In this document: one piece after another, positions 1-32,531 of the stretch
How the letters are laid out: the number at the start of each line of letters is the position of its first letter
How positions within the stretch are numbered: the first letter of the stretch is position 1
Assembly: GCA_029260475.1 (NCBI GenBank)
Contig: JAJDDE010000210.1
Span: 1-32,531 of the forward strand
Source: Phycisphaerales bacterium
GTDB taxonomy: Bacteria; Planctomycetota; Phycisphaerae; Phycisphaerales; UBA1924
Reading direction: 5' to 3'
DNA length: 32,531 nt
Notes under the pieces: model-generated
Database searches by the model: none
What the model was told of the DNA's origin: nothing
What the model saw: the letters and a program-made list of their open reading frames with translations, nothing else
Translations under genes and position numbers: made by a program

Positions 1-141
1 AATGAGGAGCTTCGGGTTCCCGATGGGAACGGAGGCGGTTTCAACCGGCGGGATAGGCCCGCCGAATTACAACATGAGGTAGAGGCGATGAATAGCAGCA
101 AACCGTGGTGGGCGAGCAAGACCGTGTGGGCGAATGTCATG
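1..141. repeat. Direct terminal repeat, left copy (circular-assembly overlap)
   Basis: These 141 bases are identical to the last 141 bases of the window (32391-32531). The reading frame of the TIM-barrel-like gene ending at 32392 runs directly into the start of this copy, and the holin-like gene begins inside it, so the two ends join in biologically sensible order. A repeat of exactly 141 bp matches a common maximum k-mer length of short-read assemblers. It is therefore more likely an overlap of a circular or circularly permuted genome than a natural terminal repeat. Confidence 0.9.
2..82 (+). CDS. Micro-ORF between TIM-barrel-like protein and holin-like protein
   Basis: This is a 26-residue ORF starting MRSFGFPMGTEAVSTGGIGP and ending PPNYNMR. 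Across the circle junction its ATG overlaps the TAA of the preceding gene as TAATG, and its stop sits 5 bp before the next start codon. The overlap style is that of the real gene junctions in this phage, which is the main reason to list it. Glycine, proline and asparagine dominate and no family is recognised. It could be a short structural appendage, or simply a spacer that keeps translation coupled into the holin-like gene. Confidence 0.35.
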   Translation: MRSFGFPMGTEAVSTGGIGPPNYNMR

Positions 142-285
142 GCGCTGATCGCAACACTTGGCGCTGGTTTCGGCCTGAATCTCGGTCTTGATCCTGAGAC
201 GCAGGCGTTGATTTTGGCGGCCGTCATGGCGCTGGTGAATTTGGCGTTGCGCTTCGTGACGAGCGAACCGATCGCATCCGAGTAG
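88..285 (+). CDS. Holin-like small membrane protein
   Basis: This 65-residue protein has a short charged N-terminus (MNSSKPWWASKTVWAN), a hydrophobic segment at about residues 16-33, a turn around GLDPETQ, a second hydrophobic segment at about 42-57, and a polar tail. Two membrane segments in fewer than 70 residues fit small class II-type holins, which form inner-membrane lesions that release endolysin. The context supports this: further small membrane proteins and a spanin-like gene follow, and the endolysin at 30515 lies about 2 kb upstream on the circle. The start follows an AGGCG ribosome-binding site. Function rests on topology and position only, so another phage membrane protein is possible. 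Confidence 0.55.
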   Translation: MNSSKPWWASKTVWANVMALIATLGAGFGLNLGLDPETQALILAAVMALVNLALRFVTSEPIASE

Positions 286-297
286 CACGTGCTCCCG

Positions 298-390
298 ATG
301 GCCTCCCTAGCGTTAAACGTCGTGTTGGCGATTGCGCTGGGGTGTGCCGTCACGGTGATCGTCCGACTGATCGAGGCAATGATCCGATGA
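298..390 (+). CDS. Very small single-span membrane protein
   Basis: This 30-residue ORF (MASLALNVVLAIALGCAVTV then IVRLIEAMIR) consists almost entirely of one hydrophobic helix followed by a basic tail. It lies 12 bp after the holin-like gene and just before the next membrane protein. Its size and position fit an accessory holin, antiholin or pinholin-type peptide, but no family is recognised. The gap would otherwise be empty in a very compact genome, which supports it being real. No clear Shine-Dalgarno sequence precedes the ATG, so translational coupling would be needed. Confidence 0.4.
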   Translation: MASLALNVVLAIALGCAVTVIVRLIEAMIR

Positions 391-403
391 CGAGGCAAGG
401 GAA

Positions 404-664
404 GTGATCGGCGTGCTACTGGGGTCGCCGAAGGTACTCGCGGGACTGGTTGTAGCCGCGGCTATCGGGCTGTGGTTGGTGTGGCGCCGCTCAGGCAAGT
501 TGCTCGGCGATGGCGTGTTCAAGATGGCCGACGAGGATGCGGAGAAATCGATCGGCGAGGCGCTCGGTAGCGCTGACTGGTACCAGAAACAAGGAGAGGC
601 TCGTGAAAAGGACGCTGATGCTCTGCGCGATGCTCGTCCTGACGGCGACAGCGGCAACCGCTGA
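404..664 (+). CDS. N-terminally anchored membrane protein, inner-spanin-like
   Basis: This 86-residue protein starts with GTG (AAGGGAA lies just upstream). It has one membrane helix at about residues 10-27 (VLAGLVVAAAIGLWLVWRR), with positive charges directly after it. A charged, helix-prone remainder of about 58 residues follows. Inner-membrane spanins such as Rz have this layout. The next gene starts inside this one in the +1 frame and overlaps it by 62 nt, which resembles the nested Rz/Rz1 arrangement. The coiled-coil part is short for an i-spanin and the tail is rich in Asp and Arg, so a holin-associated membrane protein is an alternative. Confidence 0.45.
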   Translation: MIGVLLGSPKVLAGLVVAAAIGLWLVWRRSGKLLGDGVFKMADEDAEKSIGEALGSADWYQKQGEAREKDADALRDARPDGDSGNR

Positions 665-1001
665 ACCGGCAGACCCGCCGCGGTTTGCATTCCAGATCGA
701 GGCGCCGGTGTGGCTGAACGCTGGCGACATCGCGCCCGGACCCGGTTTCTTCGTCACGGCGCAATGGCGCGCGAACATCGAGGCGGAACTCGTGTCGCGT
801 GAGGAGGCGGCCGACAATTTCAAAGCCGAGAGCGCGTCACTTCGAGAGGCGATCGAACGCTTTGAGTTCAGGGGTGACTTACGCGACGAGCGATTTGACG
901 ATGTGCGCTCGCAACTCCAATCAGCACGATTCGGCCGAGCACTCTGGCGGGGCGCTGCGCTCGGTGCGATGGTGGCGGTGCTGGTCCTCCTCGCGAAATA
1001 A
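603..1001 (+). CDS. Secreted, C-terminally anchored protein; candidate spanin
   Basis: The GTG at 603 is chosen because AAGGAGAGG lies at an ideal distance (591-599) and the product then starts with a textbook signal peptide (MKRTLMLCAMLVLTATAATA, predicted cleavage before EPADPP). The mature part holds a charged helical region at about residues 55-108 (AELVSREEAADNFKAES and so on) and ends in a membrane helix (ALGAMVAVLVLLAK). Signal sequence, helical ectodomain and C-terminal helix is the layout of unimolecular spanins, which fuse inner and outer membranes at the end of lysis. Known u-spanins are lipoproteins. Here no convincing lipobox is present, since the only early Cys is in LMLC. The call is an inference from topology and neighbours. 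Confidence 0.5.
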   Translation: MKRTLMLCAMLVLTATAATAEPADPPRFAFQIEAPVWLNAGDIAPGPGFFVTAQWRANIEAELVSREEAADNFKAESASLREAIERFEFRGDLRDERFDDVRSQLQSARFGRALWRGAALGAMVAVLVLLAK

Positions 1002-1016
1002 AAACACCCGGCCCCT

Positions 1017-1091
1017 TTGCGCGGTTAGAACCGATAGGTTATGATGCTTGCATTGCTGGGCGCATCGCCCGGCGCAGAACGGGGGAACACG
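1017..1091 (+). promoter_or_regulatory. Promoter plus hairpin leader, copy 1 of a three-copy element
   Basis: A sigma70-like promoter is visible: TTGCGC (1017-1022), 17 bp, TATGAT (1040-1045). It is followed by an 8-bp hairpin with a CAT loop (1055-1062 pairs with 1066-1073) and the box GAACGGGGGAAC (1077-1088), 3 bp before the ATG at 1092. The order GATAGGTTATG, triloop hairpin, GAACGGGGGAAC, ATG recurs almost unchanged at 6391-6454 and in weaker form at 2742-2797. The hairpin would sit at the extreme 5' end of the mRNA. It probably drives the small-protein operon 1092-2705. Confidence 0.65.
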
Positions 1092-1310
1092 ATGACCACA
1101 GCAGCTAGGCCGACACCAGTGCTATGCGATACCGCTCTCTACCTCGGCGACAACGGCGCGTGCTTTTGCGGCGCTCACGCTGGATGCGCGGCGCGGTACT
1201 CGGGCCGTGACATCAGCGGCCAGAGCGTCCATCTAATCACCGAGCAGGATCAGGAATACTCGCTAACCGAGTTTGGCTTCCAGCTTGCCTGCGAGACGTG
1301 CACGCGATGA
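1092..1310 (+). CDS. Small Cys-rich protein, first gene of left operon
   Basis: This is a 72-residue protein beginning MTTAARPTPVLCDTALYLGD. Six cysteines are present (LCDT, ACFCGAHAGC, LACETC), enough for a zinc-binding knuckle, but no known family is recognised. The ATG at 1092 is preferred over the upstream in-frame ATG at 1041 because the latter lies in the promoter, whereas 1092 follows the GGGGGA ribosome-binding box shared with two other operons. The next gene overlaps its stop as ATGA. Being first behind a good promoter suggests early expression. A host-takeover role is possible but not shown. Confidence 0.7.
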   Translation: MTTAARPTPVLCDTALYLGDNGACFCGAHAGCAARYSGRDISGQSVHLITEQDQEYSLTEFGFQLACETCTR

Positions 1311-1513
1311 AGTCACCACGCGAAGATGCCGACACGACTCGCCCGGAAGCGTATGCCTATATGGACGACGGCCCGAACGACGTTGAAATCATCGCCTACG
1401 TGGCGCTCGACGACGGGGCAGCGTGCGTAGACATCGAGGACCGGTTCAACCGCGAGGATATCCGCATCCGCTACAACGGCCGCCTGCTGGTGGTAGCGGG
1501 GCGCGGGCTATGA
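1307..1513 (+). CDS. Small acidic protein of unknown function
   Basis: This is a 68-residue acidic protein starting MKSPREDADTTRPEAYAYMD. It ends in a compact stretch likely to form beta strands (IRIRYNGRLLVVAGRGL). The ATG at 1307 overlaps the preceding TGA as ATGA, the usual junction here, so it is chosen over the upstream GTG at 1298. No motif or family is recognised. The strong net negative charge is reminiscent of small phage proteins that mimic DNA or bind host factors, but nothing in the sequence demonstrates this. Confidence 0.65.
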   Translation: MKSPREDADTTRPEAYAYMDDGPNDVEIIAYVALDDGAACVDIEDRFNREDIRIRYNGRLLVVAGRGL

Positions 1514-1740
1514 TGCGCGCCAAAGCGGACAAGGCAGGTAGAGACCTACGCTTCGACTACGTTCCGATCGACTCGTACGAAAAACGCGCGTTGTGCGAGT
1601 GCGGGGGTGAGCTACAAAGCTGTGGCGGCAGACTGCGGACTAACCCGGCGCTGTATCTCCACCGATGCAAGGGTTGCGACAAGAGGTACCAGCTCGACAC
1701 TATCTATCCTCGCGTGATTCACAGAGAGCGGAAGATATGA
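1510..1740 (+). CDS. Small zinc-ribbon protein
   Basis: This is a 76-residue basic protein. A CECGGEL motif near residue 33 and HRCKGCDKRYQL near residue 57 supply paired CxC and CxxC knuckles about 20 residues apart, with a further Cys (SCGG) between. This pattern fits a small zinc ribbon that could bind nucleic acid or protein. Two adjacent ATG codons (1510, 1513) overlap the preceding TGA, so translation is coupled to the upstream gene. No more specific family is recognised. Confidence 0.65.
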   Translation: MMRAKADKAGRDLRFDYVPIDSYEKRALCECGGELQSCGGRLRTNPALYLHRCKGCDKRYQLDTIYPRVIHRERKI

Positions 1741-1949
1741 CGGTCAGATATGCGTCCGAGAACCTGCGCGTCCTGCGATACGAGACCGGTCGCACTGCGC
1801 GGGAGATCGCGCGCAATGCCGGCGTCACCGAGAAGACGATCTATAGCTGGGAGAGCGGCAGCAGCTCTCCGAGCGCCGATCACCTAGCAGCGCTCGCTGA
1901 CGCGCTGGACGTGTCGGTGCTCGCGTTTTTTGAGGTGGTGGGCCGATGA
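1737..1949 (+). CDS. XRE/Cro-C1-type helix-turn-helix regulator
   Basis: This 70-residue protein is essentially one HTH_3 domain: LRVLRYETGRTAREIARNAG, then VTEKTIYSWESGSSSPSADH, then LAALADALDVSVLAFFE. The turn GVTEKTIYSWESG and the LAxALxVS helix are typical of the Cro/C1/XRE family, which binds operator DNA as a dimer. With no dimerisation or cleavage domain it resembles Cro-like proteins more than C1. It probably regulates phage promoters, perhaps the GATAGGTTATG element upstream of its own operon, but no operator can be assigned. The ATG overlaps the preceding stop as ATGA. Confidence 0.85.
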   Translation: MTVRYASENLRVLRYETGRTAREIARNAGVTEKTIYSWESGSSSPSADHLAALADALDVSVLAFFEVVGR

Positions 1950-2158
1950 CCGAGGACGCGGTCCGCCAGGCGATCGCCGAGGCTGTAGGCACCATGCAGG
2001 GTGTCGCTACCTCGCTGGAGAGAGCGGAGTCGCGTGAGTGCGGGCGACACAGGATCGAGGCGCTGCAGAGGATCCTGCGCTACCACGCGGACAACCTCCT
2101 GGCCGTGCTGCCTGAGGTCGCCAGTGTGTACCACGCGGCTCGGCGAGATGCGCGCTGA
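1946..2158 (+). CDS. Small helical protein of unknown function
   Basis: This 70-residue protein (MTEDAVRQAIAEAVGTMQGV and onward) is predicted to be all helical from its heptad-like Ala/Leu/Arg pattern. It has one Cys and a short basic end (ARRDAR). It overlaps its upstream neighbour by ATGA, and the next gene starts within or just after its end. No family is recognised. Its place between an HTH regulator and a winged-helix protein suggests a regulatory accessory, which is inference only. Confidence 0.6.
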   Translation: MTEDAVRQAIAEAVGTMQGVATSLERAESRECGRHRIEALQRILRYHADNLLAVLPEVASVYHAARRDAR

Positions 2159-2705
2159 GATGACGCAGACCACTCTGGACCTGTTGCGGAGCACGCTCGA
2201 CAGGTGTCGATCCGAGCGCGAGGCGATCTCGCGCGCTGATCTGTGCAGTCGATGCGGCATCAAGGACCGCCGCCTGCGTGAGGCGATCCGCGCACTGCGC
2301 CTCGGTGGAGCGCAGATCGTGACAGCGCCGGGCGGCGGCTACTACACGGCCGCGGCGCCAGAGGCAGCGGAGGAGTGGGCGAAACGAGAGCGCCGGCGAG
2401 CCGTGGCGATCTTCGTCGGCATCGCGGGCGCGTTCGGCCGGCGGCGAATGCTCGAAATGTGGGGGCAGGTGCGGCTCGACGTAGACGAGGCCGTCAGAGA
2501 CGCCCTGAGCGCTAGCGGGTCCGGACCGGCAACCACGCCGCAGGAGGACGTGGCGTATCCGTGCACGGCAAGCGTAGCGCCGGAGGCGGGCCGTGCAGTC
2601 TCCGAGCGTTGCCTCGTGTGCGGGAAGAAGCTGCACGGGCGGCAGGAGCGGTTTTGCTGCGACGGCCACAGGGACGTCTACCACGGGCGGCGGGGACTGT
2701 TCTAG
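2148..2705 (+). CDS. Winged-helix-like protein with C-terminal zinc knuckle
   Basis: This protein has 185 residues. Residues 12-66 (TLDLLRSTLDRCRSEREAIS, GIKDRRLREAIRALRLGG, then a GGGYY wing) look like a winged helix of the type found in phage DNA-binding and replication-associated proteins. The C-terminus holds RCLVCGKKLHGRQERFCCDG followed by HRDVYHGR, a CxxC and CC/H treble-clef-like knuckle seen in many small DNA-binding proteins. The middle is Ala/Glu/Arg-rich and helical. The start is uncertain: ATG 2148 overlaps the preceding gene by 11 bp, ATG 2160 lies just after its stop, and neither has a clear ribosome-binding site. A transcription regulator is the likeliest role. Confidence 0.65.
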   Translation: MRAEMTQTTLDLLRSTLDRCRSEREAISRADLCSRCGIKDRRLREAIRALRLGGAQIVTAPGGGYYTAAAPEAAEEWAKRERRRAVAIFVGIAGAFGRRRMLEMWGQVRLDVDEAVRDALSASGSGPATTPQEDVAYPCTASVAPEAGRAVSERCLVCGKKLHGRQERFCCDGHRDVYHGRRGLF

Positions 2706-2740
2706 CGCCGCCCGTCTACTACCGCCGATGCCGGCGGAAC

Positions 2741-2794
2741 TGATAAACTCATGGATCACCATCGGCCAGAATGGCCACGAGAACGGGGGACAGC
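2741..2794 (+). promoter_or_regulatory. Hairpin leader, copy 3 (diverged) before the recombination operon
   Basis: This has the same order as the leaders before 1092 and 6452: a CTGATAAAC box (2740-2748), a triloop hairpin GGCCA-GAA-TGGCC (2764-2776), and the box GAACGGGGGA (2781-2790) 4 bp before the ATG at 2795. The spacing from GATA to the GAAC box is 39 bp here, against 44 and 43 bp in the other copies. TAAACT (2744-2749) could be a -10 element, but no good -35 is seen, so the promoter is weak or needs an activator. A palindrome, CCGCC-GATGCC-GGCGG (2722-2737), lies just upstream and could be an operator. Confidence 0.45.
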
Positions 2795-3553
2795 ATGAAG
2801 AACGGGGAGCTAGATATTGCCGTCGATGCGGTAGCTACCATCGACCAGGGCGGATCCGAGACCACGCAAACGCTCGCGCTGATCGAGCGGCTGATCAAGG
2901 ACCCAGCCGTTGACGTAGACAAGCTGGAGCGAATGCTCGCGATGCACGAGCGAGTGCTGGCGCGCCAGGCCGAGGCGGCTTTCAACTCAGACTTCGCGGC
3001 CATGCAGACCGAACTGCCGGAGCTGGCAGAGCGCGGGCAGATCGTCGTCAAGGGCAGGGTGCAAAGCACGTATGCAAAATTCGCGGACATCATGGAAACG
3101 ATCAAACCTATCTTGGCGGAACGTGGTTTCGCGCTGTCGTTTCGGACGAGCTTCGACGCAGGCGAGTGCACCGTGTCGGCCGTGCTGCTGCACCGCGAAG
3201 GGCACCAGGTGTCCACGTCGTTTACCGCGAAGGCCGACAGTAGCGGGAACAAAAACCAGATCCAGGGCAGCGGGTCGGCGCAGTCGTACGGGATGCGCTA
3301 CACGACGCGGGCGTTGCTGAATCTCACGACACGCGGACTCGACACCGACGGTCAGGGGACCGCAGCGGCCGAGGCACCAGGCCCCGACGGCTACGATAAC
3401 TGGCTCGCCGACATGGAGGCCGTGGCGGACAGCGGAACGTCGGCGCTCATGGAGGCGTGGACCGGATCTCGGGCCGACTACCGCCGGCACCTGACCGCGA
3501 CGAATCCGCAGCAGTGGGCGCAGGTCAAGGCCCGCGCGGCGCGCGTCTCGTGA
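2795..3553 (+). CDS. erf: ERF-family single-strand annealing recombinase
   Basis: This 252-residue protein matches the ERF superfamily of single-strand annealing proteins, which coat resected DNA and pair complementary strands. Diagnostic stretches are YAKFADIMETIKPILAERGF (the conserved Y-x-xL-x3-P-L region), a middle beta-rich segment around VSAVLLHREGHQVSTSF, and GSGSAQSYGMRYTTRALLNL (the GSAxTYxRRY-like motif). The C-terminal third is low in conserved motifs, as usual. The start at 2795 follows the shared GGGGGA box; an in-frame ATG at 2771 lies inside the leader hairpin. It is paired with the YqaJ exonuclease downstream, forming a Red-like recombination module. Confidence 0.88.
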   Translation: MKNGELDIAVDAVATIDQGGSETTQTLALIERLIKDPAVDVDKLERMLAMHERVLARQAEAAFNSDFAAMQTELPELAERGQIVVKGRVQSTYAKFADIMETIKPILAERGFALSFRTSFDAGECTVSAVLLHREGHQVSTSFTAKADSSGNKNQIQGSGSAQSYGMRYTTRALLNLTTRGLDTDGQGTAAAEAPGPDGYDNWLADMEAVADSGTSALMEAWTGSRADYRRHLTATNPQQWAQVKARAARVS

Positions 3554-3822
3554 GCCGGCGCAAGAGGTTCGTCTTGGAGGGAGAGTGGTCTGGCTATACG
3601 TCGCAACAGCAGAGGGTCGTCCACCGCGAGGTTACGCTGTTTCCTGCAGAGGTCGCGCATTTGCGTGGAATAACCTACGGAGACGGCACGTCGCTGCTGT
3701 TGTCCTTGAGAGAATGTGAGCCGCGAGAGAGAGTGGTAGCCATCCGCGGGTACTGCTCTCTTGTTCGGGCGGCGGCGCGGCTCAACAAGTCCTGGGTCCA
3801 CGTCGCGGAGTTGAGAACGTGA
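3550..3822 (+). CDS. Small protein of unknown function in recombination operon
   Basis: This is a 90-residue basic protein starting at GTG (product begins MSRRKRFVLEGEWSGYTSQQ) and overlapping the ERF stop as GTGA. Predicted strands near the start (RFVLEGEWSGY and RVVHREVTLFP) and a helical C-terminal part suggest a compact domain. No family is recognised. Its position between the annealase and the exonuclease suggests a recombination accessory, but there is no motif evidence. Confidence 0.6.
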   Translation: MSRRKRFVLEGEWSGYTSQQQRVVHREVTLFPAEVAHLRGITYGDGTSLLLSLRECEPRERVVAIRGYCSLVRAAARLNKSWVHVAELRT

Positions 3823-4478
3823 CGGCCAGGGCGTTCCAGATCGTGGACTATCCTCAGCGCTCGCCGGAGTGGTTCCACGCTCGCGTTGGCAGGCTCACGG
3901 GCTCGCGTGCAGCCGCGATGCTCTCGTCGATCAAGTCAGGCGAGGCCGCCGGGCGTCGTAACCTGCGGGTGGAGCTGGTATGCGAGCGTCTCACCACGCT
4001 TGATCAGTCGCCGGACTTCCACTCGCGCGACATGGAGCGTGGCCAGGAGCGCGAGAGCGACGCGATCGCGTTGTTTGAGGGCGCGACCGGCGAACTGGTG
4101 CAGTTCGCGGGGTTCCTTTCTTCCACTGAGCACATGGCGGGGTGTTCGCCCGACGGCTACCTCGGCGACTTCGACGCGATCGTGGAGGCCAAGTGCCCGA
4201 AGGCCGCGACGCATCTCGAGTACTTGGACCGCGGCGCTGTGCCGCCGAAGTATCTCCCTCAGCTCCGGCACAACGTCTGGATTTCGGGCGCCGAGGCCGC
4301 CTACTTTGTCAGCTACAGCCCAGACTTTCCGGAGTCGCTGGCGCTGTCGGTCGTCCGGATCGAGCGCGATCAGCTCGACATCGACGAATACGAGGCTGCG
4401 GCGCTGCAGTTCTTGTCCGAGGTTGACGAGGAATTTGAGCGCGTCGCGGCGATGTCTAACGCGAGGTGTAGCTCGTGA
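3819..4478 (+). CDS. YqaJ-type viral exonuclease (lambda Exo-like)
   Basis: This 219-residue protein carries the YqaJ/lambda exonuclease signatures. The N-terminal motif RSPEWFHARVGRLTGSRAAA is at residues 14-33. The catalytic core CSPDGYLGDFDAIVEAKCPK is at 109-128 and supplies Asp (D112, D119) and the E123-x-K125 pair of the PD-(D/E)xK fold. A helical region follows with PKYLPQLRHNVWISGAEAAY, the usual Q-containing motif. The enzyme resects one strand of duplex DNA to feed the ERF annealase encoded two genes upstream. It starts with GTG, overlapping the preceding stop by GTGA. Confidence 0.9.
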   Translation: MTARAFQIVDYPQRSPEWFHARVGRLTGSRAAAMLSSIKSGEAAGRRNLRVELVCERLTTLDQSPDFHSRDMERGQERESDAIALFEGATGELVQFAGFLSSTEHMAGCSPDGYLGDFDAIVEAKCPKAATHLEYLDRGAVPPKYLPQLRHNVWISGAEAAYFVSYSPDFPESLALSVVRIERDQLDIDEYEAAALQFLSEVDEEFERVAAMSNARCSS

Positions 4479-4681
4479 GGGCCGCACTGATCGACAATGC
4501 GATCAGGCTGGTTATGCTCGCGCGGGCCGTGGCGCGTCGGTGCTTGGTCCCGCTTCGGGTAAGGCGGGTCGCGATCAGGCGACATGGGGCACTGCTCGGA
4601 ACGACCGTGCTTGGGGTGGTCCGCGTGTACGTGTTCGGCGTTCTGGTTGCCGAGATCCAAAAGACGTCCCCGTGGGAGTAG
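4475..4681 (+). CDS. Small basic protein with one hydrophobic helix
   Basis: This 68-residue ORF has a GTG start overlapping the exonuclease stop as GTGA. The N-terminal half is strongly basic (ARAVARRCLVPLRVRRVAIR), then a hydrophobic stretch (ALLGTTVLGVVRVYVFGVLV) could span a membrane. No family is recognised. The junction style and the otherwise empty 220 bp favour a real gene. High arginine content, common in wrong-frame reads of GC-rich DNA, lowers confidence. Confidence 0.4.
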   Translation: MRAALIDNAIRLVMLARAVARRCLVPLRVRRVAIRRHGALLGTTVLGVVRVYVFGVLVAEIQKTSPWE

Positions 4682-4700
4682 CGCCTAAAAGGTCGGGGTC

Positions 4701-4991
4701 GTGAGCGCCAGGGGCCGAGCGTCCATTTGCCGCGCGGACCAGAACCAGCTCGAAATCGTCACCGGACTGCGCGAGGTGCCGGGAGTTTCGGTGCTCGTGC
4801 TATCGCAGCAAGGGCGAGGATGCCCGGACCTGCTGGTGGGGTTTCGGGGCCGCTGCTTTCCGATGGAGGTAAAGATGCCGGGAGAGGGGCCGTCACCGGC
4901 ACAGGTTGAGTGGGCGGAGGCGTGGCGCGGCAGGGCTCCCGTGGTCGTGCACTCGCTACGCGGAGCGCTCTCGGCGCTGGGCATCGGGTGA
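4701..4991 (+). CDS. VRR-NUC-type nuclease
   Basis: This 96-residue stand-alone VRR-NUC domain has a GTG start. The catalytic pattern is visible: the RG-CPDLLVGFRGRCFPMEVK segment supplies D43 and the E56-x-K58 pair of the PD-(D/E)xK fold. It is followed by SPAQVEWAEAWRGRAPVVVHS, the family's usual C-terminal part. Such phage proteins resemble Holliday-junction or structure-specific nucleases and sit in recombination/replication operons, as here after ERF and YqaJ. It is the last gene before a strong terminator hairpin at 5028-5097. Confidence 0.85.
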   Translation: MSARGRASICRADQNQLEIVTGLREVPGVSVLVLSQQGRGCPDLLVGFRGRCFPMEVKMPGEGPSPAQVEWAEAWRGRAPVVVHSLRGALSALGIG

Positions 4992-4992
4992 T

Positions 4993-5021
4993 GCGACTCT
5001 GCGGCTCATTTATGGCATACT
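4993..5021 (+). promoter_or_regulatory. Candidate promoter of short transcript A
   Basis: GCGACT (4993-4998), a 17-bp spacer and CATACT (5016-5021) form a modest sigma70-like promoter right at the end of the nuclease gene. The -10 is preceded by TTTATGG, similar to the TTATG core of the operon promoters at 1040 and 6401. Initiation would fall around 5028, at the base of the terminator stem, giving an RNA of roughly 70 nt. The -35 is poor, and the hairpin could also be reached by read-through from the recombination operon. Confidence 0.35.
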
Positions 5022-5027
5022 GGCGCC

Positions 5028-5097
5028 ATCGACTGGGCGGGCGATGTGCGCTGTTGCGTTACCCCGTTCCGGTGCCCGCCCGCCTGGTCGATATTTT
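5028..5097 (+). terminator. Intrinsic terminator ending the recombination operon
   Basis: A 16-bp stem (5028-5043 with 5077-5092) with a 33-nt loop is followed by ATTTTT (5093-5098). The stem is very GC-rich and is the strongest hairpin after the VRR-NUC gene. It would end transcription coming from 2795-4991 as well as any RNA started at the weak promoter 4993-5021. Confidence 0.75.
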
Positions 5098-5098
5098 T
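5028..5098 (+). ncRNA. Candidate small RNA A with anti-Shine-Dalgarno loop
   Basis: The whole RNA would be one long hairpin: 5028-5043 pairs with 5077-5092 over 16 bp (two G-U pairs), followed by ATTTTT. Its 33-nt loop contains GTTACCCCGTTC (5058-5069). This is complementary to GAACGGGGGAAC, the ribosome-binding box of the operon leaders at 1077 and 6437, at 11 of 12 positions. It also matches 9 of 10 positions of the box at 2781. At the first leader, pairing can continue weakly through the start codon. This suggests trans-acting translational control by a stable terminator-loop RNA. Expression as a separate RNA is unproven. Confidence 0.45.
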
Positions 5099-5139
5099 CA
5101 GAGCGGGGTCGAAACGGGGTACTGGTGGCGTGGGCGCTG

Positions 5140-5169
5140 TTGAGTTTCGCTGCGTGTCGGGTGTATAAT
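5140..5169 (+). promoter_or_regulatory. Strong sigma70-like promoter before the replication gene
   Basis: TTGAGT (5140-5145), an 18-bp spacer and a perfect TATAAT (5164-5169) make this the closest match to the bacterial housekeeping consensus in the window. Transcription would start near 5176. Everything between the two terminators (5099-5139) appears non-coding, so this promoter serves either the short unit 5176-5294 or, by read-through, the replication gene at 5328. Confidence 0.75.
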
Positions 5170-5175
5170 TCGCCC

Positions 5176-5294
5176 ATGCGAGGCTACCAGGCGGAGCGAT
5201 TTATGACGTTTAGGGCGCGTGAACGTAGCCTCGCAGCTATCGTTCCGTCATGCGCGCCTTGCCGGTCCTGGCTCACGCTGGGGCCGGCTTTTTT
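5176..5294 (+). ncRNA. Candidate small RNA B or attenuator leader of replication gene
   Basis: From the TATAAT promoter the RNA would fold a perfect stem (5177-5187 with 5225-5235, 11 bp) and then the terminator hairpin at 5261-5288 with six U residues, giving about 119 nt. The loop of the first stem exposes CGGAG and an ATG at 5203. Competing pairings exist: ATGACG (5203-5208) with CGTCAT (5246-5251), and GGCGCG with CGCGCC. This is the kind of mutually exclusive folding used in attenuators. Either a stand-alone RNA or a conditional leader fits. No known RNA family is recognised. Confidence 0.5.
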
Positions 5295-5331
5295 GTGCCG
5301 AGGACGGGGCGGCGCGGCGAGGACACAATGA
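5203..5331 (+). CDS. Possible leader peptide coupled to the replication gene
   Basis: This 42-residue ORF starts at the ATG at 5203 with CGGAG placed 6 nt upstream, and its TGA overlaps the replication gene's ATG as ATGA, the junction used throughout this genome. It runs straight through the terminator hairpin, so a translating ribosome could prevent the hairpin from forming. The peptide (MTFRARERSLAAIVPSCAPC, then RSWLTLGPAFLCRG) is Arg-rich and has no recognised motif, so it may be a regulatory leader rather than a functional protein, or not translated. The same frame is open further upstream. Confidence 0.35.
   Translation: MTFRARERSLAAIVPSCAPCRSWLTLGPAFLCRGRGGAARTQ
5261..5294 (+). terminator. 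Intrinsic terminator 33 bp before the replication gene
   Basis: GCCGGTCCTGGC (5261-5272) pairs with GCTGGGGCCGGC (5277-5288) over 12 bp around a TCAC tetraloop, followed by TTTTTT (5289-5294). It is a textbook intrinsic terminator. No promoter fits in the 33 bp before the ATG at 5328, so replication gene expression would need read-through or an alternative fold. Confidence 0.85.
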
Positions 5332-6374
5332 AGCTCCCCTACATGCCCTGGTATCCCGGTGACTATCTGGCCGACACTATCCACCTGTCGATGTTGGAAG
5401 ATTGCCTGTACCGGCGCCTGCTCGACGCTATATGGCTCGCTGGAGGGTCGTTGCCCAACATCCCCGAGCAACTACGCCGACGAACGCGATGCACAGAGGA
5501 CGAGTGGAACGAAGCGTGGCCGGCGCTGTCGGGCCTGTTGACCGTCACCGACGAGCTCGTGACGCAGAACCGCCTCAGCCGCGAGGCCGAAAAGGCTGTG
5601 GCCAAGTATGCGAACGCGGTCAGGGCGGGGAAACGCAGCGCAGAGCTGCGCGCGACCCGTTCAACGGATGTTCAACGACCGTTGCAACGGACGCTCAACG
5701 AACGCTCAACGACCGTTGCAACGGATGCTCAACGACCGTTGCAACAGGACGCCCAACAACCAGAACCAGAACTAGAACCAGAAGAAGCAAAGAAGGGAGT
5801 CGCGGTGCCCGCCTCCCTGGCCCCTCTGGATGGACTGCTAGCGAAGGCGCGTTCTGCCTGCGCTAGCACCCGCAAAAGCGGCAAGATGGCCGAGTCGGTT
5901 TGGCAGGGCACGCTCGCTCGACTCGAGCAGTTCGATGTGGCAGCCGTGCACGATGGCGTTACGAGGTATCTCGACCGCGCCTATTGCCTCGACGGCAAAG
6001 GCGAGCGCTACATGCTCGGCGTGGTGCGCGGGATGGTGAAGGAAATTGCGCGGCGCGAGTCGGTGCACGACGACGGCATCGCCGCCAACGCCGCCCCGAC
6101 CCCGACCCCGACCCCGACCCCGGAGCCTGAGTACGCGACCATTCCCGCGGGGTTGACGGACCAGGCCGGCGCTCATCGTCAGATGGTCGAGCGTTTCAAG
6201 GCGACCTTCGCCGATCCCCAAAGTTATGACACCTGGGCGCGGCCGTGCCGGGCGCTGGGAATGAGCGGTGAAACGATCGTGATCCTCGCACCAAACGCGA
6301 CGCTCGCGGACTGGGTTAGGCGCAAGGCCGGCGGCGGGATGTCGATTGTGGTCGGGCAACTGAGGGAGCGTTGA
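5328..6374 (+). CDS. Replication protein: DUF1376 N-terminus, DnaA-domain-I-like C-terminus
   Basis: This protein has 348 residues. Residues 1-95 (MPWYPGDYLADTIHLSMLED, LYRRLLDAIWLAGGSLPN) match DUF1376/YdaU, found in phage replication organisers. The middle is a Gln/Pro-rich linker encoded by iteron-like repeats and a Thr-Pro repeat. The last 70 residues (FKATFADPQSYDTWARPCRA, then SGETIVILAPNATLADWVRR) resemble DnaA domain I, which contacts DnaB helicase. By analogy with lambda O, the protein probably binds the repeats inside its own gene and recruits host helicase. GCGAGGA gives a good ribosome-binding site; an upstream GTG at 5250 lies before the terminator and is rejected. Confidence 0.8.
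   Translation: MKLPYMPWYPGDYLADTIHLSMLEDCLYRRLLDAIWLAGGSLPNIPEQLRRRTRCTEDEWNEAWPALSGLLTVTDELVTQNRLSREAEKAVAKYANAVRAGKRSAELRATRSTDVQRPLQRTLNERSTTVATDAQRPLQQDAQQPEPELEPEEAKKGVAVPASLAPLDGLLAKARSACASTRKSGKMAESVWQGTLARLEQFDVAAVHDGVTRYLDRAYCLDGKGERYMLGVVRGMVKEIARRESVHDDGIAANAAPTPTPTPTPEPEYATIPAGLTDQAGAHRQMVERFKATFADPQSYDTWARPCRALGMSGETIVILAPNATLADWVRRKAGGGMSIVVGQLRER
5660..5751 (+). repeat. Iteron-like repeats inside the replication gene, candidate origin
   Basis: Three 23-24-bp units start at 5671, 5705 and 5728, each holding TCAACGACCGTTGCAAC. Shorter 11-bp half-units lie at 5660 and 5694. Copies 1 and 2 carry the perfect palindrome CCGTTGCAACGG. The units fall in different reading frames (encoding QRPLQ in copies 1 and 3, STTVAT in copy 2), so conservation is of DNA, not protein. 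An A-rich tract follows directly (5752-5797). Iterons within the initiator gene next to an AT-richer tract is the layout of lambda-type origins. Confidence 0.65.
6094..6123 (+). repeat. CCCCGA hexamer repeat coding a Thr-Pro linker
   Basis: Four perfect CCCCGA units plus one CCCCGG unit encode a PTPTPTPTP stretch separating the central part of the replication protein from its DnaA-like C-terminus. Tandem hexamers can change in number by slippage without breaking the frame, so linker length may vary between relatives. Confidence 0.8.
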
Positions 6375-6377
6375 CCG

Positions 6378-6451
6378 TGGACTCACTCTCACCGATAGGT
6401 TATGCTGTTGGAATGGCTGGGCGCCGCCCGGACACAGAACGGGGGAACAAC
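6378..6451 (+). promoter_or_regulatory. Promoter plus hairpin leader, copy 2
   Basis: TGGACT (6378-6383), 17 bp and TATGCT (6401-6406) form a sigma70-like promoter embedded in ACCGATAGGTTATG, identical over those 14 bases to the promoter at 1030-1043. A triloop hairpin (6417-6422 with 6426-6431, loop GCC) and the box GAACGGGGGAAC (6437-6448) follow, 3 bp before the ATG at 6452. Preservation of blocks and spacing, rather than whole-sequence identity, argues for a functional element. It drives the small-protein operon and perhaps everything downstream to the terminase genes. Confidence 0.65.
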
Positions 6452-6586
6452 ATGCCGACGGATCGCAACCCGCTAGCTATCGACCACGCCGACACACGCA
6501 CGCGCGACGATCTGATCCGTGACGGCGAGTGGTACGACGACGACTGGGACCCTTGGACCGACTACGAAGGAGACGACGATGAGTGA
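6452..6586 (+). CDS. Small, very acidic protein behind leader copy 2
   Basis: This is a 44-residue protein ending in an Asp/Glu-rich tail (DGEWYDDDWDPWTDYEGDDD). It begins with ATG 6452 directly after the shared GGGGGA box; an upstream TTG at 6371 lies before the promoter -10 and is rejected. Extreme negative charge with tryptophans is a feature of some DNA-mimic phage proteins that block host nucleases or regulators, but small acidic proteins are common and no family is recognised. It is first in its operon, so early and abundant expression is plausible. Confidence 0.6.
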   Translation: MPTDRNPLAIDHADTRTRDDLIRDGEWYDDDWDPWTDYEGDDDE

Positions 6587-31382: not shown

Positions 31383-32392
31383 CCAGGTTTACGAATAAGG
31401 ACCGGCGCCAACTCGGCTCCGTAGTCAGGCAGTTGCAGCGCATTCGCGGCGACACGCCGCGTGACGAAGACATTCTCCGGCAAGCTCGCGACAAGCTCGG
31501 CGCCGTGCTCGGCCGGCACGCGCCTCCCGTCCCGCCTGGGAATGACCGCGTGCCGCTGTGGCCATTTACCTGCGACATGCTGTACAACGGGCTGCCGGGA
31601 AGTGATAACGGGCGACCGTACCCCGGCCAGACCCTCCACCTCCCGCTACTGAAACCGAGCGAGGTGCGGCGCACACTCGATTACGCGCAAGCGGCCGGGC
31701 ATACCCATATCGCTATATGCACGCGCTCGGGCCTGGACGGCCGCCACAGCTTCAAGCTGGCCGGCGAGTACGACTTTCTACGCGACCCCGAGGAGCTAGA
31801 GCCTCTGTATGAGGAGGTCACCCGCCGCGGCATGGCGCTGATCGTCTTTCTTCTGGAGGACGACGACCGCAGCTACAACGCCAACACGGCGCGTGTGCTC
31901 AAAGGGTGGAAGCGGTTTCTCGATTACTGGTATCCGCGACTCGCGATCTCTGGTGTCTACACCGGCATCGAGGTCAACGAGACGGTCGGCGAGCAGGGCG
32001 GGCTCTCGCGCACCAAGCCTCGCACGCGGGCAATGCAGACGGAACGGGTGGCATGGCTCAATGGCAACTATCCCGGCCTGCCTGTCGGAATGCATCTAAC
32101 CTCCGATGCGCTGATCGAGGTTCCTGGCGTCTACTGGTACGGGTACCAAGCACATGCCACCAGTCACGACGGGTCGCTGCGCTCGCCTGGTGCATTCGCC
32201 AACGAGTTCGGGCCGAACACCGACAACGACCAGCCGCGGCCGGGACTGTGGGCGAAGGAACGCGGCGCTCGGCTTGCTCTCATGGAGGTCGCCGACACAT
32301 CCATTACGCCGGAGATCCTCGCGGGCATGGTCGCGGGCGCTCGAGATGGCGCGAGGGTGGCGGGTAACGAGTTTTCTTCCGGAGTTGGTTAA
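31379..32392 (+). CDS. TIM-barrel glycosidase-like protein
   Basis: This is a 337-residue protein. A basic N-terminus is followed by WPFTCDMLYNGLPG and alternating strand/helix units typical of a TIM barrel: AAGHTHIAICTRSGLDGRHS, RGMALIVFLLEDDDRSYNAN, SGVYTGIEVNETVG, NYPGLPVGMHLTSDALIEVP. Glu and Asp at strand ends (FLLEDDD, GIEVNE) would be the catalytic pair of a glycoside hydrolase. I recall similar phage proteins near tail or lysis genes, so it may degrade capsule or glycan. The exact family cannot be named. Its TAA overlaps the micro-ORF start across the circle junction. Confidence 0.55.
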   Translation: MTRFTNKDRRQLGSVVRQLQRIRGDTPRDEDILRQARDKLGAVLGRHAPPVPPGNDRVPLWPFTCDMLYNGLPGSDNGRPYPGQTLHLPLLKPSEVRRTLDYAQAAGHTHIAICTRSGLDGRHSFKLAGEYDFLRDPEELEPLYEEVTRRGMALIVFLLEDDDRSYNANTARVLKGWKRFLDYWYPRLAISGVYTGIEVNETVGEQGGLSRTKPRTRAMQTERVAWLNGNYPGLPVGMHLTSDALIEVPGVYWYGYQAHATSHDGSLRSPGAFANEFGPNTDNDQPRPGLWAKERGARLALMEVADTSITPEILAGMVAGARDGARVAGNEFSSGVG

Positions 32393-32531
32393 TGAGGAGC
32401 TTCGGGTTCCCGATGGGAACGGAGGCGGTTTCAACCGGCGGGATAGGCCCGCCGAATTACAACATGAGGTAGAGGCGATGAATAGCAGCAAACCGTGGTG
32501 GGCGAGCAAGACCGTGTGGGCGAATGTCATG
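32391..32531. repeat. Direct terminal repeat, right copy
   Basis: This is identical to 1-141. It holds the last two bases of the preceding gene's stop codon, the 26-residue micro-ORF and the first 18 codons of the holin-like gene. These partial copies are not extra genes; they appear because the circle is cut here. Confidence 0.9.

What the first reader, a model, noticed from the sequence alone, without database searches (positions are those of the whole stretch)
5028..5098. Terminator-loop RNA complementary to the phage's own operon ribosome-binding boxes
The 33-nt loop of a 16-bp terminator hairpin carries GTTACCCCGTTC (5058-5069). The boxes GAACGGGGGAAC at 1077-1088 and 6437-6448 are complementary at 11 of 12 positions, with one G/A mismatch at the same place, and GAACGGGGGA at 2781-2790 at 9 of 10. 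At 1077 pairing can extend through the ATG (16 of 18 positions, three of them G-U). Pairing would cover the Shine-Dalgarno region of three operons, so a short RNA could switch their translation in trans. I know of no described phage RNA of this kind. A C-rich loop meeting a G-rich box in GC-rich DNA by chance is the main alternative.
Basis: partly seen in the sequence, partly recalled or inferred. Interest (0 to 1): 0.82.

Follow-up and report, generated by a model that had tools for sequence, protein, structure and literature searches.

The report
Terminator loop mirroring phage ribosome-binding boxes
In a small uncultured phage, the loop of an RNA hairpin that ends one gene cluster is nearly the mirror complement of the ribosome-binding sites that start three gene clusters; the match is real and somewhat more than chance, but nothing yet shows that the phage uses it to control translation.

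Summary
Loop GTTACCCCGTTC (5058-5069) is complementary at 11/12 to the boxes at 1077 and 6437, and at 9/10 to the box at 2781. The boxes are the Shine-Dalgarno (SD) part of a repeated promoter-hairpin-SD cassette 3-4 nt before three ATGs. The hairpin is the terminator of the ERF/YqaJ operon. There is no promoter for a separate 70-nt RNA, and the loop is predicted to be largely folded.

Chance: exact match is unusual (P 0.0005 in loop shuffles; 0.04 expected per genome; 0.003 for two starts). Binding energy with accessibility is not (P 0.06), and the boxes rank 3rd, 4th and 10th of 553 sites. The loop is as complementary (11/12) to its own downstream sequence, 5110-5121. No close relative was found, so covariation cannot be tested.

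An independent parallel appeared. Cluster K mycobacteriophages repeat an SD-position box (SAS). The single reversed copy known in K1 phages lies, in those examined, in the loop of a covarying hairpin in an unannotated noncoding region. There too the loop changes in relatives that are reported to keep the SAS.

Verdict: ordinary terminator with unproven complementarity most likely (0.5); anti-SD RNA plausible (0.28). The claim that no such phage RNA is known is wrong (c4).

The parts
1029..1094 (+). Leader cassette 1: promoter-like ACCGATAGGTTATGAT, hairpin 1055-1073, SD box GAACGGGGGAAC 1077-1088, ATG 1092
2738..2797 (+). Leader cassette 2: promoter-like AACTGATAAACT, hairpin 2764-2776 of different sequence, SD box GAACGGGGGA 2781-2790, ATG 2795 (ERF gene)
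6390..6454 (+). Leader cassette 3: copy of cassette 1, hairpin 6417-6431, SD box GAACGGGGGAAC 6437-6448, ATG 6452
5028..5098 (+). Intrinsic-terminator hairpin (16 bp, then A-TTTTT), 36 nt after the stop codon of ORF 4701-4991
   Evidence: (z -4.1)
5058..5069 (+). Anti-box GTTACCCCGTTC in the hairpin loop, complement of the SD boxes (11/12)
5110..5121 (+). Cis complement of the loop, CGAAACGGGGTA (11/12 with 5060-5071); also the fifth copy of AACGGGGKA
2795..3553 (+). ERF-family recombination gene, first gene of the operon that ends at the hairpin
   Evidence: PF04404, 2e-16
3819..4478 (+). YqaJ-like viral recombinase gene of the same operon
   Evidence: PF09588, 2.8e-23
4701..4991 (+). Endonuclease-like gene (phrog_93), last gene before the terminator

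Best explanation
The hairpin 5028-5098 is the ordinary Rho-independent terminator of the ERF/YqaJ recombination operon (cassette 2 to 5098). The boxes are the Shine-Dalgarno segment of a promoter-hairpin-SD cassette that the phage reuses in front of three early operons. The loop's complementarity to the boxes exists in the sequence but most likely has no dedicated regulatory role: a C-run in a long GC-rich loop meets a G-run SD, and the flanking GAAC matches are a low-probability coincidence found by looking. Shown by sequence: cassette, terminator, complementarity. Inferred: absence of function.
For: Position 36 nt after the last stop codon and before a T-run; no independent promoter upstream of the hairpin; loop largely folded. 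The three boxes are explained by cassette reuse. Pairing energy with accessibility is matched by 6% of shuffled loops, and other sites in phage coding sequence bind as well or better (7986 at -13.9; boxes -11.9, -11.7, -10.5 kcal/mol). Any of 54 starts gets an 11/12 partner from 7% of shuffled loops. The finding was selected from many possible observations.
Against: The exact 11/12 match is rare (P 0.0005 in loop shuffles; 0.043 expected on the whole + strand). It is the only scanned hairpin loop above 9/12, and two starts at 11/12 occur in 0.3% of shuffles. AACGGGG[GT]A occurs exactly five times in the genome, all in the early region's gaps between annotated genes (0.33 expected). Cluster K1 phages show the same anatomy independently.
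Confidence: 0.5

Rival explanations
1. Anti-SD feedback RNA: the terminator hairpin, either still attached as the 3'-UTR of the recombination operon or released by processing, pairs through its loop with the SD boxes in cis (2781) and in trans (1077, 6437) and lowers translation of the early operons once the middle operon is fully transcribed, like icaR 3'-UTR or c4 RNA.
For: 11/12, 11/12 and 9/10 complementarity over three SDs; predicted net energies -9 to -12.6 kcal/mol after opening costs; rarity of the exact match; boxes 3rd, 4th and 10th of 553 sites; parallel in cluster K1; precedents PMC12197685, PMC3868564.
Against: No separate promoter; loop partly folded; energy not better than 6% of shuffles; an A/G mismatch in the middle; no relatives for covariation; in cluster K the loop changes in subclusters reported to keep the SAS.
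Confidence: 0.28
2. Cis partner: the loop pairs with 5110-5121 in read-through RNA, giving an H-type pseudoknot on the terminator or an alternative hairpin 5060-5121, and the resemblance to the leader boxes is incidental.
For: 11/12 complementarity in cis, shuffles P=0.002; without the 5' arm, 5048-5125 folds into hairpin 5060-5121 at -33.7 kcal/mol.
Against: The partner lies downstream of the terminator, so it cannot prevent termination during transcription; the terminator is the more stable fold in the full segment; this does not explain the extra GAAC match to the leaders.
Confidence: 0.12
3. Protein-binding motif: AACGGGGKA is a non-palindromic DNA or RNA site placed in early intergenic gaps in both orientations (four + and one -), for instance for a phage regulator; the complementarity is a by-product of one site being reversed.
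For: Exactly five copies of AACGGGG[GT]A in 32,390 bp, all in the early region's gaps between annotated genes, 0.33 expected on both strands and none of 400 shuffles with five; the match is more unusual as identity than as binding energy.
Against: Three copies are exactly at SD position in a duplicated cassette and need no other reason; the motif was defined after seeing it; no known binding protein.
Confidence: 0.1

Closest known systems
Start-associated sequences (SAS/ESAS) of cluster K mycobacteriophages (PMC3203893, PMC11373665)
   Same: Short non-palindromic box at SD position before several early genes, longer than SD needs, preceded by a promoter with inverted repeat (ESAS) in a subset; K1 phages have a single reversed copy not at a gene start, which in Anaya and relatives I find in a hairpin loop.
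   Different: Different sequence (GGGATAGGAGCCC against GAACGGGGGAAC); 11-19 copies against 3; the K1 reversed copy is in a ~380-nt noncoding region, not in a terminator loop; no sequence homology to this phage.
c4 antisense RNA of phages P1 and P7 (PMC12197685)
   Same: Phage RNA whose complementary segments, probably in loops, cover a ribosome-binding site of the phage's own mRNA.
   Different: c4 acts on ant mRNA and immunity; here three operons share one box and no RNA has been shown.
icaR 3'-UTR / SD pairing and UCCC loops of S. aureus sRNAs (PMC3868564, PMC3861533)
   Same: C-rich 3'-UTR or loop motif pairs with a G-rich SD; the middle operon here would be the same 5'-3' arrangement.
   Different: Experimentally shown there; Gram-positive host mRNA, not a phage; longer 3'-UTR.
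P22 sar and lambda OOP RNAs (PMC12197685)
   Same: Small phage RNAs of 68-77 nt acting on phage mRNAs by pairing.
   Different: OOP is a cis-encoded antisense RNA; sar pairs with ant mRNA only; neither targets a box shared by several operons.

Membership tests
Intrinsic (Rho-independent) terminator | GC-rich stem followed by a T-run at an operon end | tested here: met
   16-bp stem, A-TTTTT, 36 nt after the stop codon
Trans-acting phage sRNA | Own promoter or defined processing site | tested here: not met
   No sigma-70-like promoter found between 4991 and 5028; processing not testable
Trans-acting phage sRNA | Stable RNA of defined size during infection | not testable with these tools
   No transcriptome for this uncultured phage
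Anti-SD pairing RNA (c4 / icaR 3'-UTR type) | Complementarity to SD of its own target mRNAs beyond chance | tested here: inconclusive
   Exact match unusual, binding energy marginal
Anti-SD pairing RNA (c4 / icaR 3'-UTR type) | Covariation of loop and target in relatives, or compensatory mutants | not testable with these tools
   No close relative found in phages, viral contigs, genome contigs or 163 family genomes
Start-associated sequence system (works like) | Repeated box longer than SD need, 3-9 nt before several early starts, in intergenic gaps | tested here: met
   Three boxes 3-4 nt before ATG, all in gaps
Start-associated sequence system (member) | 13-nt GGGATAGGAGCCC consensus of cluster K | tested here: not met
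   Box sequence differs; read against PMC3203893

The most novel reading that the evidence does not exclude
Phages that mark several early genes with one shared, over-long ribosome-binding box also encode a single anti-box in an RNA hairpin loop, a one-to-many translation switch. It would have arisen independently in this phage (terminator loop 5058-5069) and in cluster K1 mycobacteriophages (loop CCUCCUAUCCC in a conserved, unannotated noncoding region).
Probability: 0.22. Interest if true: 0.78.

Novelty: new variant of a known kind. Interest (0 to 1): 0.42.

Why it matters
If real, one short RNA loop would tune the translation of all early operons of a phage at once, through a box shared by their ribosome-binding sites. 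Phage RNAs that block a single start are known; one-to-many control through a shared box is not described in the papers read here. The cluster K parallel makes the idea testable now in cultured phages and would give a role to start-associated sequences, whose function has been open since 2011. If not real, the case shows how a C-rich loop and a G-rich SD can look like regulation in GC-rich DNA.

Tried and rejected
Close relatives for covariation: none in phages, viral contigs by ERF, DUF1376, terminase or leader patterns, genome contigs or family genomes; capsid relatives only at 27-36% identity, too distant for leaders. Rfam: nothing at gathering score; BjrC68 at 21 bits (cut-off 39) judged chance. 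The reverse strand of the loop as an SD of a leftward gene: no start codon at the right distance (read). 5113 as the SD of a GTG ORF at 5125: coding score below 98.7% of in-frame segments, so probably not coding, though also above 98% of out-of-frame ones. The cluster K loop as proof by covariation: rejected, because loops change in subclusters reported to keep the SAS.

Full report
What the window is. The 32,531-base contig repeats its first 141 bases at its end, so it is a complete circular assembly of about 32,390 bp. It is a tailed-phage genome (terminase, ERF recombinase, YqaJ recombinase, DUF1376 replication gene) held as contig 210 of a 3.4-Mb genome. The genes assigned in the early region are on the + strand. 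No close relative was found in 50,697 phage records, in IMG/VR by five protein or pattern scans (the capsid scan gave only 27-32% identity), in GTDB genome contigs or in 163 genomes of the family.

The boxes. GAACGGGGGAAC at 1077 and 6437 and GAACGGGGGA at 2781 lie 3-4 nt before ATG codons at 1092, 6452 and 2795. They are the 3' end of a cassette: a promoter-like AACYGATARRYT element, a short hairpin whose sequence differs between cassettes (GCTGGGCG/CGCCCGGC in the first, GGCCA/TGGCC in the second), then the box. Copies 1 and 3 are 85% identical over 34 nt, so they count as one event. The simplest reading is a reused strong leader with an SD; GGGGG can pair with CCUCC of 16S rRNA with one G-U (established knowledge).

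The hairpin. 5028-5098 is a 16-bp stem followed by A-TTTTT, z -4.1 against shuffles, 36 nt after the stop codon of ORF 4701-4991, the last gene of the ERF/YqaJ operon. It is best read as that operon's terminator. No promoter was found between 4991 and 5028, so a short RNA would have to come from processing. In the predicted fold the 33-nt loop carries an inner stem; only UUACCC (5059-5064) is free.

Is the complementarity more than chance? By exact match, yes within limits. Shuffled loops reach 11/12 to the box with P=0.0005, and the whole + strand is expected to hold 0.043 such sites; it holds one, the loop. No other hairpin loop scanned on either strand exceeds 9/12. Allowing any of 54 starts, 7% of shuffled loops reach 11/12 at one start and 0.3% at two. 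By energy, less so. With accessibility on both sides, 6% of shuffled loops and 4% of C-matched genomic segments do as well, against 0.3% of random 33-mers. Scanning the whole + strand, the boxes rank 3rd, 4th and 10th of 553 sites, and a site inside a coding region (7986) binds best. These numbers are post hoc and the finding was picked from many, so they do not settle the matter.

A wider pattern. AACGGGG[GT]A occurs five times on both strands, all in early-region gaps between annotated genes: 1078+, 2782+, 6438+, 5068- (the loop) and 5113+. Shuffles give 0.33 on average and never five. The motif was defined after seeing it. The fifth copy makes the loop 11/12 complementary to 5110-5121 in cis (P=0.002), and 5048-5125 without the 5' arm folds into that alternative hairpin. 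Three readings therefore compete: trans or 3'-UTR pairing, a cis structure, and a protein-binding motif that happens to be reversed once.

An independent parallel. Cluster K mycobacteriophages carry start-associated sequences, GGGATAGGAGCCC, at SD positions, and Pope et al. (PMC3203893) note that Anaya, Adephagia, Angelica and CrimD each have a single reversed copy not at a gene start. I located it in Anaya (record 59870). It lies in the loop of hairpin GCGCGG-CCUCCUAUCC-CCGCGC, in a noncoding region that blastn finds in 177 phage records, mostly without an annotated gene under the match. The 10-nt core CUCCUAUCCC, the exact complement of GGGAUAGGAG, is kept in 8 of 8 K phages examined from that group (Anaya, Angelica, Adephagia, LastHope, Niklas, Urkel, Yunkel11, LilPharaoh), while the stem shows three pairs with changes on both sides. 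In Amgine, Amohnition, Krueger, Ximenita and Unicorn the loop is another pyrimidine-rich, anti-SD-like sequence, and in Marshawn, LeMond, Keshu, SirPhilip and Pharb it is lost. The SAS is reported as conserved in most subclusters (PMC12699233), although I did not map the SAS sites of those particular phages. So the parallel raises plausibility but also shows a loop that does not track its box strictly.

Comparison with the known. The icaR 3'-UTR (PMC3868564) and UCCC loops of S. aureus sRNAs (PMC3861533) are mechanistic precedents. What would be new is one loop addressing a box shared by three operons.

Verdict. Observation confirmed; interpretation partly supported. Ordinary terminator with unproven complementarity 0.5; anti-SD feedback RNA 0.28; cis structure 0.12; protein-binding motif 0.1. 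Shown: sequences, cassette, terminator position, match statistics, cluster K hairpin. Inferred: any pairing in the cell and any effect on translation.

Noticed in passing
5140-5294: Best promoter-like site of the early region (TTGAGT-18-TATAAT, 5140-5169) followed by a predicted H-type pseudoknot (stem 1 5177-5187/5225-5235, 11 bp perfect; stem 2 5192-5200/5239-5247, 9 bp) and an intrinsic terminator 5261-5294 just before the DUF1376 replication gene; looks like an attenuator leader or small RNA, no Rfam match at gathering score.
   Followed up: partly
5653-5745: Four partly overlapping copies of CGACCGTTGCAACGG-type repeats inside the DUF1376 gene, resembling origin iterons inside a replication gene as in lambda O (the comparison is from memory).
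   Followed up: no
L045 (JF704106.1 59682-60066) and loci L046-L063: Conserved noncoding region in 177 cluster K mycobacteriophage records, unannotated in most, with a hairpin whose loop CCUCCUAUCCC is the complement of the start-associated sequence; not found described in the papers searched.
   Followed up: partly
1-141 and 32391-32531: 141-bp terminal direct repeat: the contig is a complete circular assembly (141 is a usual largest k-mer of MEGAHIT, from memory), so its place in the host bin is not proof of host.
   Followed up: yes
2800-2807: A second GAACGGGG lies in codons 2-5 of the ERF gene, 19 nt after the first; in one of the two interaction scans the loop binds it best of all sites in that leader (-12.6 kcal/mol).
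   Followed up: partly
5045-5060 and 5131-5146: 16-nt direct repeat (88%) between the terminator loop and the -35 region of the next promoter.
   Followed up: no
5125-5331: Open frame of 68 aa after the 5113 box, starting GTG and ending ACAATGA over the start of the DUF1376 gene; coding score between in-frame and out-of-frame segments, so undecided.
   Followed up: partly
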